Shown: positions 1 to 2,381 of the stretch, in pieces | How the letters are laid out: every line of letters starts with the position of its first letter | Position numbering within the stretch: position 1 is the first letter of the stretch | DNA from: a virus | Length of the DNA: 24,620 bases | Reading direction: 5' to 3' (one strand) | Virus record (IMG/VR): IMGVR_UViG_3300032081_000295 | Location: 1 to 24,620 of that record | Made by a program: the position numbers and the translations under genes | The notes under the pieces: model-generated | What the model was told of the DNA's origin: nothing | What the model saw: only the letters and a program-made list of their open reading frames with translations | Databases searched by the model: none

Positions 1-741
1 TTTACTTTTGAAAACAACCAGCCTGAAGATATAGTTAACATGTCACAGGTTTTATTACTTCAGTCAGGAGTATCTCTTAAAGATCTTAAACGAGAAGTAC
101 AGGTTGCACCTAACGGCTCCAAGATGACTGTTAAGTACACCCTACCTGACTACACTGTTGACCTTGGTAACGGTGACGAGACTCAGTTTCAGATATTGTT
201 TTATAATTCTTTTGACGGTACTTGGAGTTTTACTATTAGAGCTGGGGCAATACGTATGGCTTGTCTTAACAATCAAGTACATGCAAACGATATCAGCATG
301 TTCAAAGCCAAGCACACTCCCTCTATCAACCCTGATCATGCTCGTCGCAAGATGGTGGAAGCTATCCAACAGTTCCATGCTGAAGGTGAACGCTGGTCAC
401 GTTGGAAGCAACAGTCTGTCACAAACCGTCACGCCTTTGAAACCTTTGCCGTTGCAGCAGGTTGTAAGTTTGTTTTATCTAGTGAAACGATGAGCATCTA
501 CGAGCTGTTAGAACACAAGAGCGTGTACACTAACCGCAACCTGATGTACATGTGGAACCAGTACACCAAGCATGAACAGAAGTACCTTGGTTCTAACGAA
601 TGGGCTATCTACAACGCGCTTACTCACTGGTCTACCCACGCACCAGCGGGACGTAAAACTAATATTAATAACGAGATGGCTACCACTGTACGTAGGCAAG
701 AGTCTGTACGTGGCGCTATTGTACGGAGGTTAGCAGCATGA
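1..741 (+). CDS. DUF932-like phage protein, 5' end outside window
   Basis: The frame is open from the first base (13 sense codons before the ATG at 40), and that ATG has no good Shine-Dalgarno sequence, so the real start probably lies left of the window; ATG 40 would give 233 residues. Counting from that Met, the stretch around residues 55-82 (NSFDGTWSFTIRAG, then RMACLNNQVHAND) and the late segment EWAIYNALTHWSTH resemble the DUF932 family, phage and plasmid proteins of unknown biochemical role often found near replication genes. No catalytic motif is evident. The stop overlaps the next gene's start by four bases, so the two are probably translated as a unit. The DUF932 link is read from short motifs and is moderately secure; function is unknown. 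Confidence 0.62.
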   Translation, partial: FTFENNQPEDIVNMSQVLLLQSGVSLKDLKREVQVAPNGSKMTVKYTLPDYTVDLGNGDETQFQILFYNSFDGTWSFTIRAGAIRMACLNNQVHANDISMFKAKHTPSINPDHARRKMVEAIQQFHAEGERWSRWKQQSVTNRHAFETFAVAAGCKFVLSSETMSIYELLEHKSVYTNRNLMYMWNQYTKHEQKYLGSNEWAIYNALTHWSTHAPAGRKTNINNEMATTVRRQESVRGAIVRRLAA

Positions 742-1223
742 ACGAAATATTGCATAAAAATATAGAAGACCTAGAGTTATCTGTAAGATGTATAAATGCT
801 CTTAAAAAAGACGGTATTAATTTAGTTAGTGAGCTTATTAGAATACCACCTCTTTTGATTACAAAGCTTCCACATGTCGGTAAAAAACAGTTGACTGAAA
901 TAGAAGGTGCTTTTGCTAGGCATGGACTAGAGCTTGGTACTCCTGTACGTGCTGAAAGACCCACAGCAAAGATTGACTTAGATGCAGACTTTATTCTTCA
1001 GGCTTACGCAAAAGACTATATTTGTATAGACGGCGTGTATAAAGTTTCAAATAATAAAAGAATGCTCGCTTGTTTCACTACTTTCAGGGATTACAACGAC
1101 CCTGAAGAACATCTCAGAGAAATACTAAACCTAAGAGATTCCCTTCTTGCAGTGTATGCGTTTTACCCTGACGGTGATGTAACTGTGGAGTTAACTATAA
1201 AAGATGAACTGGTGAACGCATGA
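738..1223 (+). CDS. Protein with RNA polymerase alpha C-terminal-domain-like module
   Basis: The protein has 161 residues. Residues 6-68 read like the bacterial RNA polymerase alpha-CTD: IEDLELSVRCINALK followed by HVGKKQLTEIEGAFARHG. Lined up with E. coli alpha, the DNA-contact positions Arg265, Asn268, Leu270, Lys271, Gly296, Lys298 and Glu302 correspond to R17, N20, L22, K23, G48, K50 and E54; Ser299 is Q51. This two helix-hairpin-helix fold normally binds UP elements and activators. Residues 78-161 form a second, acidic domain I do not recognise. A strong GGAGG at 725-729 sits 8 bases before the ATG. It lacks the alpha N-terminal domain, so it cannot assemble like alpha itself. Likely role (inference): DNA binding, or mimicry that redirects host transcription. 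A general helix-hairpin-helix DNA-binding protein is the alternative. Confidence 0.85.
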   Translation: MNEILHKNIEDLELSVRCINALKKDGINLVSELIRIPPLLITKLPHVGKKQLTEIEGAFARHGLELGTPVRAERPTAKIDLDADFILQAYAKDYICIDGVYKVSNNKRMLACFTTFRDYNDPEEHLREILNLRDSLLAVYAFYPDGDVTVELTIKDELVNA

Positions 1224-1384
1224 ATAAGAAAGATTTAATATGGGAGTTGATGGAACTTAAAGAACAAGATCTAAGTGGTTATCCTATTGAGCATATACTT
1301 GGATACAAAAGTGCTTTGGATGAAGCTATAGATTTAATCATGCCGTTCCTAATGAAGATTAAGGAGAATGAAAATGAACATTGA
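1220..1384 (+). CDS. Small hypothetical protein (54 aa)
   Basis: An ATG at 1220 overlaps the preceding TGA (ATGA junction) and opens a 54-codon frame ending TGA at 1382-1384, filling what would otherwise be a gap. The product starts MNKKDLIWELMELKEQD and is charged and helical, with a hydrophobic stretch near residues 37-46. No family is recognised. Its 3' end overlaps the next gene by 11 bases. Support comes from gene packing and codon use like that of the neighbours; there is no strong independent ribosome binding site, so translation is probably coupled to the gene before it. Confidence 0.6.
   Translation: MNKKDLIWELMELKEQDLSGYPIEHILGYKSALDEAIDLIMPFLMKIKENENEH
1361..1366 (+). promoter_or_regulatory. 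Ribosome binding site (AAGGAG) that decides the start at 1374
   Basis: AAGGAG lies 1 base before an in-frame ATG at 1368 but 7 bases before the ATG at 1374. Normal spacing favours 1374 as the start of the following gene. Confidence 0.6.
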
Positions 1385-1631
1385 CATAGACTGGGACACA
1401 GTAGAAGCAGTCGGCATAGAGTACGTAAAAGAATCCTATGTCGCACTGCTTGAAACATTTCAGGGCTACGATCACAACAACGATGACCACCAAAAAGAGT
1501 TTATGAAGAACGTAACCCGCGCGGAATGCTTTGAAACTGTTTTAAAATACATACTACCTGAAGGAGAATCACATGCGTTTATTGCTGGACAAAGGCAGAA
1601 ACATCTTAACCAGATTGACCTCTTTAATTAA
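1374..1631 (+). CDS. Hypothetical protein (85 aa)
   Basis: The ATG at 1374 is chosen over 1368 because of the AAGGAG at 1361-1366. The 85-residue product begins MNIDIDWDTVEAVGIEYVK, is acidic with several aromatic residues (W, Y, F) and His/Asp-rich around residues 31-42 (YDHNNDDHQKEF). No family is recognised, and no transmembrane segment or known catalytic motif is visible. It overlaps the small gene upstream by 11 bases and the membrane-protein gene downstream by 59 bases, consistent with compact phage packing. Function unknown. Confidence 0.65.
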   Translation: MNIDIDWDTVEAVGIEYVKESYVALLETFQGYDHNNDDHQKEFMKNVTRAECFETVLKYILPEGESHAFIAGQRQKHLNQIDLFN

Positions 1632-1743
1632 AGACTGTATCGTAGATGTCTTAGAAGGAAACTTAACGAGACAAGAGTGGCTGGCGTTGTACTCTTGTGT
1701 TATAATATTTACAATCTTTTTTATTGTAGGAGCAGCATCGTGA
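1573..1743 (+). CDS. Small single-pass membrane protein (56 aa)
   Basis: The ATG at 1573 is preceded by AAGGAG at 1561-1566 with 6-base spacing and opens a 56-codon frame ending TGA 1741-1743. The first half is basic and amphipathic (MRLLLDKGRNILTRLTSLIK); the C-terminal third is a hydrophobic helix (YSCVIIFTIFFIVGAA) long enough to span a membrane. The last four bases overlap the GTG start of thyX (GTGA), the typical geometry of translational coupling. Most of this gene lies in the short stretch between the upstream gene and thyX that would otherwise be noncoding. No family is recognised. Confidence 0.62.
   Translation: MRLLLDKGRNILTRLTSLIKDCIVDVLEGNLTRQEWLALYSCVIIFTIFFIVGAAS
1698..1706 (+). 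promoter_or_regulatory. Candidate extended -10 promoter before thyX
   Basis: TGTTATAAT is a perfect extended -10 element (TGn plus TATAAT), about 33 bases before the thyX start codon. The -35 region at the expected place (about 1678-1683, TGGCTG) is poor, as allowed for extended -10 promoters. It lies inside the transmembrane codons of the 56-residue gene, so chance is a real alternative. Confidence 0.3.
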
Positions 1744-2381
1744 AAGTAGAAATGATAGACCTTATGGGTAGTGATTTAACTGTTGTAAACAGTGCGAGAG
1801 TTTCTTTTGATAAAATATCTACACGCTTTAAAGATAAAGATAAAGGGCTTATTAGATACTTAGCAGAGCATGATCATTGGACACCCTTCGGTCATGTACA
1901 GGCTCAGTTTAGGATTAAAGCTCCACTCTTTATTGCAAGGCAGTTGGTTAAGCATCAGACTGGATTGGTCTGGAATGAGGTCAGCCGAAGGTATGTAGAT
2001 AGCGAGCCAGAGTTCCATGCTCCTGAAGGTTGGAGAAAACGTGCGTCAGATAAGAAACAAGGTTCACTTGATGAAACATTTAAAGGAAATGATGAAGTAA
2101 GATTTGACGAAAAATACTGGGACTTAGTTACTAGAATTAAAACTACTTACGACAACATGATAGCTTCCGGTGTCGCTCCAGAGCAAGCACGTATGTTACT
2201 GCCTCAGTCTATGATGACTGAATGGATCTGGACTGGGTCGTTAGTTGCATTTGCTAGAGTATTTAAGCTAAGATCTAGTAAGGATGCTCAGTACGAATGT
2301 CGTCAAGTAGCTAGAATGATTGATGATGAATTTAGAAAATGTCCCCAACTTAAATACTCATGGAGAGCGTTATGTCAATAG
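1740..2381 (+). CDS. thyX: Flavin-dependent thymidylate synthase ThyX
   Basis: The enzyme methylates dUMP to dTMP using methylene-tetrahydrofolate, FAD and NADPH, supplying thymidine for phage replication. The start is GTG 1740, with AGGAG at 1728-1732 spaced 7 bases; earlier in-frame starts lack such a site. This gives 213 residues, typical for ThyX. The signature region at residues 67-85 reads RQLVKHQTGLVWNEVSRRY, matching the ThyX motif RHRxxSxNExSxRY in its second half but with KHQ for RHR and one extra residue. R151 in ARMLLPQS and R178 in FKLRSSKDAQYECRQ match conserved nucleotide-binding segments. It pairs functionally with the ribonucleotide reductase at 9954-11828. The family call is secure; the altered motif is noted as unusual. 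Confidence 0.95.
   Translation: MKVEMIDLMGSDLTVVNSARVSFDKISTRFKDKDKGLIRYLAEHDHWTPFGHVQAQFRIKAPLFIARQLVKHQTGLVWNEVSRRYVDSEPEFHAPEGWRKRASDKKQGSLDETFKGNDEVRFDEKYWDLVTRIKTTYDNMIASGVAPEQARMLLPQSMMTEWIWTGSLVAFARVFKLRSSKDAQYECRQVARMIDDEFRKCPQLKYSWRALCQ

What the first reader, a model, noticed from the sequence alone, without database searches (positions are those of the whole stretch)
738..1223. Phage-encoded mimic of the RNA polymerase alpha C-terminal domain
Residues 6-68 match alpha-CTD closely, including the positions that bind UP-element DNA (R17, N20, K23, G48, K50, E54), while the alpha N-terminal assembly domain is missing and replaced by an unrelated C-terminal domain. No phage RNA polymerase is seen, so the protein could steer host polymerase by occupying UP elements, binding activators or sigma, or competing with alpha-CTD. 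Residue conservation is read from the sequence; function is inferred.
Basis: partly seen in the sequence, partly recalled or inferred. Interest (0 to 1): 0.75.

Follow-up and report, generated by a model that had tools for sequence, protein, structure and literature searches.

The report
Phage protein with borrowed polymerase domain
A phage related to marine phages carries a small early protein whose front end is a real copy of the promoter-DNA-gripping domain of bacterial RNA polymerase, bolted onto a phage-only domain that sister phages carry alone; it probably helps the phage control the host's transcription machinery, but this is untested.

Summary
ORF 738-1223 (+, 161 aa) has a true RNA polymerase alpha-CTD at residues ~2-72 (PF03118 E=3.6e-15; top structural match E. 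coli alpha-CTD/sigma4 on UP DNA), no alpha-NTD, and a separate C-terminal domain. New here: the C-domain is an undescribed phage family (no Pfam, PHROG, PDB or cultured-phage match; predicted beta-beta-alpha-beta) that stands alone in 40 sister records. Seven of 52 records carry the alpha-CTD on its N-terminus. Primase and ThyX trees need at least three gains/losses, and one alpha-CTD (97% nt identity) sits on two C-domain types (72%), so it is a mobile module. UP-DNA contacts R265, N268, G296, K298, E302 are kept in six of seven copies (one has R265C); the CRP-contact surface is changed in all; dN/dS is high (0.6-1.15). Relatives carry one divergent pair of near-perfect sigma70 promoters around an AT-rich gap, a plausible target. 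Other viral contigs carry NTD-less alpha-CTDs, including sigma-region-4/alpha-CTD fusions. Most likely a DNA-binding modulator of sigma70 transcription; function is inferred.

The parts
738..953 (+). alpha-CTD module (residues 1-72) of the fusion protein
   Evidence: PF03118 3.6e-15; 1lb2 4.8e-11; Foldseek 3n97; DNA contacts R17, N20, G48, K50, E54
942..986 (+). flexible hinge (residues ~69-83) and, at its 3' side, the conserved start of the C-domain, where fused and unfused alleles appear to recombine
   Evidence: pLDDT <50 at residues 74-76; domain histories change here
963..1220 (+). C-domain (residues 76-161), undescribed phage family, beta-beta-alpha-beta
   Evidence: stand-alone homologues at about 33-85% identity; AF2 pLDDT 83; no match in Pfam, PHROGs or PDB sequences
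1221..1223 (+). stop codon; overlaps the next start by 4 bases
40..741 (+). upstream neighbour, DUF932 protein (PF06067 1.6e-18), 4-base overlap
1220..1631 (+). two small downstream genes (54 and 87 aa) of one linkage cluster, conserved next to the C-domain gene in many relatives
   Evidence: cluster c5
1677..2381 (+). ThyX (PF02511 1.2e-43; start uncertain), conserved downstream landmark

Best explanation
The 161-aa protein is an early phage DNA-binding modulator of host sigma70 transcription. Its N-terminal alpha-CTD, of gammaproteobacterial type, docks in the minor groove of AT-rich (UP-like) DNA next to -35 elements, as host alpha-CTD does, and a flexible hinge places the phage C-domain (probably a dimerisation or partner-binding domain) at that promoter. 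The likely first target is the phage's own divergent early/late promoter pair, whose two -35 boxes face each other across a short AT-rich gap; there it could raise one promoter or block the host alpha-CTD. Shown: domain identity, modular and repeated gain/loss, selective retention of the DNA-contact surface, divergent near-perfect promoters in relatives. Inferred: DNA binding, the target site, the direction of regulation, the C-domain's role.
For: PF03118 and PDB/Foldseek identity. Of 23 polar or glycine positions near-invariant in host rpoA, the eight DNA contacts are kept in 4.9 of the 6 aligned phage sequences against 2.2 for the other fifteen (permutation P=0.007), while the CRP surface is lost. 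The alpha-CTD is gained/lost on a resident early gene at least three times and recombined between C-domain types, so it acts as a useful plug-in. Divergent TTGACA-N16/17-TATAAT and TTGACA-N17-TATACT promoters flank a 12-58 bp, 15-25% GC gap, once in each of nine related genomes; shuffled rate 0.6% per locus. Other viral contigs fuse alpha-CTD to sigma70 region 4 (PF04545 1e-16 plus PF03118 5e-15 in L206; also L203, L209), so phages elsewhere use this module in transcription proteins. UP elements are AT-tracts read by alpha-CTD upstream of -35 (PMC4496709); R265 and N268 are critical DNA-binding residues (PMC11434276).
Against: No binding or expression data. Whole-domain dN/dS is near 1 (0.6-1.15 against 0.08-0.42 for measurable C-domain pairs), compatible with relaxed constraint. 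One copy (L029) has R265C. S299 is Q in all copies. The width of the promoter gap does not track alpha-CTD presence (26 bp with; 12, 14, 28, 58 bp without), and most phages with this promoter pair lack the domain. The window does not reach its own divergent promoter region. The C-domain's fold and role are unknown.
Confidence: 0.5

Rival explanations
1. Competitor: the protein has no promoter preference of its own but coats UP elements genome-wide, displacing host alpha-CTD and depressing rRNA and other UP-dependent host promoters.
For: DNA-contact surface kept without the alpha-NTD; the CRP and, in most copies, sigma contact positions changed, as expected of a non-productive competitor.
Against: A free alpha-CTD competing against polymerase-tethered alpha-CTD is expected to need very high abundance (general knowledge). 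Fusion to a conserved phage domain argues for targeting. The gene sits inside a replication operon, not a host-takeover cluster.
Confidence: 0.18
2. DNA tether for a replication or nucleotide-metabolism role: the C-domain works in DNA replication and the alpha-CTD only adds DNA affinity.
For: The gene lies by DUF932, ThyX, primase-helicase and polymerase genes; in L002/L028/L029 it is between primase-helicase and polymerase. Most phages use the C-domain without the alpha-CTD.
Against: Position in an early operon does not fix function. The module gained is specifically alpha-CTD, and independent phage fusions join it to sigma region 4.
Confidence: 0.17
3. Sequestration of host activators or sigma: a soluble alpha-CTD titrates CRP-like activators or sigma region 4.
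For: E. coli alpha-CTD is the contact for CRP and sigma4 (general knowledge); the window copy keeps acidic D11 and E13 at the sigma-contact positions.
Against: The 287 determinant (CRP contact) is P/L-rich in the window and K/Q/R in relatives; E261 is G or K in the five other aligned fused copies. Sequestration would not need the DNA-contact residues that are kept.
Confidence: 0.06
4. Decaying passenger: an accidental fusion that persists without function and is being lost.
For: dN/dS near 1 across the alpha-CTD; R265C in L029; patchy presence (7 of 52 records).
Against: Seven open fusions with no stop in the domain, at 51-96% identity; the core and DNA-contact residues stay fixed; the module has been transferred by recombination.
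Confidence: 0.09

Closest known systems
Bacterial RNAP alpha subunit (RpoA) C-terminal domain, PF03118
   Same: Sequence, fold and most DNA-contact residues; nearest to gammaproteobacterial sequences, SAR86 among the best.
   Different: No alpha-NTD; sits at the N-terminus instead of the C-terminus; fused to a phage domain; GKKQL[TS]EI replaces GKKSLTEI, and no relative in 84,980 genomes was found with that signature.
Phage proteins that act on the host alpha-CTD/UP axis: T4 transcription takeover (review PMC2988021; Alt/ModA from memory), phiKMV-like Rac (PMC7552054), Mu Mor at a promoter with a partial UP element (PMC4390567)
   Same: Phage control through the alpha-CTD/UP axis.
   Different: Those modify, cleave or contact the host alpha; this protein carries an alpha-CTD itself.
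Viral sigma70-region-4/alpha-CTD fusions seen here (L203/L210, L206, L209) and other NTD-less viral alpha-CTD proteins (L171-L211)
   Same: Phage-encoded alpha-CTD without alpha-NTD.
   Different: Partners differ (sigma4 HTH, coiled-coil-like stretches, other domains); the alpha-CTD is usually C-terminal; not close relatives of this protein.
Cellular proteins with an alpha-CTD-like stretch outside RpoA: BREX PglW (NF033442) and small protein family NF005841
   Same: Weak similarity over the same stretch (PglW 7e-4 in PADLOC; NF005841 7.5e-4 for L030).
   Different: Unrelated architectures and weak scores.

Membership tests
alpha-CTD domain (PF03118) | score above the curated cut-off | tested here: met
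   55.9 bits against 23.8; six related records also above it
alpha-CTD domain (PF03118) | alpha-CTD fold, closer to alpha-CTD than to a generic HhH | tested here: met
   Foldseek hits with E<=0.001 are RNAP alpha entries; no HHH family listed for this protein at E<=10
alpha-CTD domain (PF03118) | UP-DNA contact residues R265, N268, C269, N294, G296, K298, S299, E302 | tested here: inconclusive
   window keeps R, N, G, K, E; C269 is A, N294 is H, S299 is Q
alpha-CTD domain (PF03118) | binds UP-element DNA | not testable with these tools
   needs EMSA or footprinting
RNAP alpha subunit (RpoA) | alpha-NTD assembly domain | tested here: not met
   best rpoA equivalog 51 bits, all far below cut-offs of 228-523, matching only the C-terminal part
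RNAP alpha subunit (RpoA) | 287 determinant for CRP-type activators | tested here: not met
   T285 E286 V287 E288 replaced by P P L L in the window
RNAP alpha subunit (RpoA) | 261 determinant for sigma region 4 | tested here: inconclusive
   D11 and E13 kept in the window; E261 is G or K in the other aligned fused copies
Single-subunit (T7-type) RNA polymerase phages | phage-encoded RNAP, PF00940 | tested here: inconclusive
   no hit in 15 records, but no control rang and the records are fragments
C-domain in any described family | match in Pfam, PHROGs, PDB sequences or cultured phages | tested here: not met
   no significant match
C-domain in any described fold | clear structural neighbour | tested here: inconclusive
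   PDB best E=0.19 (phi29 p6) and Z<=4.2; BFVD best E=4e-3 to an unnamed 98-aa viral protein

The most novel reading that the evidence does not exclude
Phages use the polymerase alpha-CTD as a mobile plug-in: they attach it to their own proteins (here an early C-domain protein; elsewhere sigma-region-4 proteins) to dock at UP elements beside sigma70 promoters, a widespread undescribed class of transcription regulator built from polymerase parts.
Probability: 0.4. Interest if true: 0.8.

Novelty: new variant of a known kind. Interest (0 to 1): 0.62.

Why it matters
Known phage tactics against the alpha subunit modify, cleave or contact it. A phage that carries its own alpha-CTD on a separate protein would be a new way to redirect host transcription without a phage polymerase. 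It offers a natural test of what a detached alpha-CTD can do, and a lead to how uncultured phages with divergent sigma70 promoters control early and late genes. The contrast between fused and unfused sister genes makes it experimentally tractable.

Tried and rejected
Generic HhH: no such family listed and no preference for it. Host rpoA fragment or contamination: rejected, the gene sits in a tight phage operon with a fused phage domain and six fused relatives. SAR86 as donor/host: SAR86 sequences are among the best hits (56% to L030), but the tree puts phage copies on one long branch without placement inside a host clade, and the window copy's best scores are to other gammaproteobacteria; left open. 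T7 Gp2-like fold for the C-domain (memory of its beta/alpha make-up): no support in Foldseek or VIA. phi29 p6 was the top PDB fold hit but at E=0.19; not claimed. Promoter-gap width as a marker of alpha-CTD phages: no correlation. Compensated frameshift to explain the divergent block at residues 36-46: the alignment of the phage copies is ungapped. Literature on phage-encoded alpha-CTD: nothing found in seven searches; the library lacks most subscription journals. First genome-contig scan with phage alpha-CTDs found no cellular relative carrying the phage signature.

Full report
OBSERVATION. The ORF at 738-1223 (+) is intact (161 aa, ATG) and overlaps the genes on both sides by 4 bases. Residues 2-56 match PF03118 at E=3.6e-15, the only Pfam family listed at E<=10. 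phmmer against the PDB gives E. coli alpha-CTD first (4.8e-11), and nearly all of the 52 sequences listed are RNAP alpha subunits. AF2 gives two separate domains with a low-confidence hinge at 74-76 (mean pLDDT 81 for the best model, but only one of five models is good). Foldseek puts the E. coli alpha-CTD/sigma4/UP-DNA complex 3n97 first. NCBIfam rpoA models match only over their C-terminal stretch, far below the cut-offs, so the protein is not an RNAP alpha subunit.

THE C-DOMAIN IS A PHAGE FAMILY OF ITS OWN. Residues 76-161 find homologues only in uncultured viral contigs and none in 50,697 phage records, Pfam, PHROGs or PDB sequences. An alignment of 34 members (A8) gives a confident beta-beta-alpha-beta model (pLDDT 83) without a convincing structural neighbour. 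In 40 records the gene is complete at its N-terminus and stands alone (about 84-97 aa; counted); five further records are cut at a contig end. The gene usually sits just upstream of one or two small genes and ThyX, with a variable upstream neighbour: DUF932, a Pyr_excise-like protein or primase-helicase.

SEVEN FUSED COPIES. PF03118 rings in the window and in 6 of 51 related records: L001, L002 (near-identical), L028, L029, L030, L038. On the primase tree the label needs at least 3 changes forced by well-supported branches; the window's closest relative, L013 (81% primase identity), has the stand-alone form in the syntenic place. The ThyX tree likewise needs 3. The two domains have different histories: L001 and L028/L029 share alpha-CTDs 97% identical in DNA but C-domains only 72% identical, whereas the L028/L029 C-domains are 88-95% identical in DNA to those of unfused L013, L027, L023 and L031. 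The switch lies at the conserved start of the C-domain. L029's genome carries a stand-alone C-domain paralogue directly after the fusion gene. So an alpha-CTD was added to a resident phage gene and then moved among alleles; it is not an alpha subunit that lost its NTD.

ORIGIN. The best cellular matches are gammaproteobacterial rpoA; SAR86 gives the highest identity (56% to L030). The phage copies group together on a long branch (73 columns, weak resolution), with a signature GKKQL[TS]EI for which no relative was found in 84,980 genomes. One ancient capture from a gammaproteobacterium is the simplest reading; the host is not established. By DNA polymerase, the nearest cultured phages are marine (Pelagibacter phage HTVC103P/HTVC115P types, Roseobacter phages, about 48% or less).

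WHICH SURFACE IS KEPT. In E. coli numbering, R265, N268, G296, K298 and E302 are conserved in all copies except R265C in L029; S299 is Q in all; the window also has A at 269 and H at 294. The CRP-contact 287 determinant is changed in every copy, and E261 of the sigma-contact determinant is kept only in the window. Among 23 polar or glycine positions near-invariant in host rpoA, the DNA contacts are retained in 4.9 of 6 aligned phage sequences against 2.2 for the rest (P=0.007; the rows are related, the polar-only comparison was chosen after the first test, and over all 41 positions including the hydrophobic core P is only 0.086). NG86 dN/dS over the alpha-CTD is 0.6-1.15, against 0.08-0.42 for C-domain pairs that could be measured: either diversifying change of other surfaces or relaxed constraint. 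That residues R265 and N268 are critical for DNA binding is from PMC11434276; UP elements as AT-tracts upstream of -35 from PMC4496709. The other determinants are named from general knowledge of E. coli alpha-CTD.

A PLAUSIBLE TARGET. The scan of 25 loci from 14 genomes found, in nine genomes and once in each, a divergent pair of near-perfect sigma70 promoters (one 12/12 and one 11/12, or both 11/12) back to back, with 12-58 bp of 15-25% GC DNA between the two -35 boxes (shuffled rate 0.6% per locus; several of the nine are close relatives, so about five distinct sequences). In L212 one promoter reads toward the terminase gene and the other toward the early operon that holds the fusion gene. 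Host alpha-CTD would bind there, and so could the phage alpha-CTD. The gap does not differ consistently between fused and unfused phages, so this is a candidate and not evidence of function. The window itself ends before this region.

MECHANISM. Best supported: an early DNA-binding modulator of host sigma70 transcription, with the alpha-CTD docking at AT-rich DNA and the C-domain as oligomerisation or partner domain (0.5). Rivals: genome-wide UP competitor (0.18), DNA tether for a replication-related C-domain (0.17), passenger in decay (0.09), activator/sigma sequestration (0.06).

WIDER CONTEXT. A broader viral scan found some forty further alpha-CTD loci, and those read out carry no alpha-NTD, among them proteins with both sigma70 region 4 and alpha-CTD above Pfam cut-offs (L203/L210, L206, L209). 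Several of these contigs carry terminase hits. Nothing on phage-encoded alpha-CTD proteins was found in the paper library, which is incomplete. The domain is known, the use is not: a new variant of a known kind.

Noticed in passing
L203 2599-3264, L206 2410-3210, L209 2581-3273 (and L210): Viral contigs encode proteins with sigma70 region 4 (PF04545, 3e-14 to 1e-16) followed by alpha-CTD (PF03118, 5e-15 to 3e-18): two promoter-binding parts of the polymerase holoenzyme fused in one phage protein.
   Followed up: partly
L212 3209-3292 (also L214, L221, L224, L226, L229, L233, L234, L235): One divergent pair of near-perfect sigma70 promoters around a short AT-rich gap, once per genome in this phage group, apparently serving the early and late strands.
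   Followed up: partly
L212 3510-3650: Repeated CTAGACTGTCTAG-like motifs in the divergent intergenic region; possible operator or origin repeats.
   Followed up: no
L212 11341-12086: Tandem alpha-CTD/C-domain fusion and stand-alone C-domain paralogue of another subtype; the alpha-CTD there has Cys at the R265 position.
   Followed up: partly
L198 3001-3423: Another N-terminal alpha-CTD (starts MKEVLDKNVEELELSVRAINALK, like the window) fused to a different, unidentified C-terminal domain.
   Followed up: no
window 1220-1631: Two adjacent small genes (54 and 87 aa) fall in one linkage cluster, appearing separate or merged in relatives (c5).
   Followed up: no
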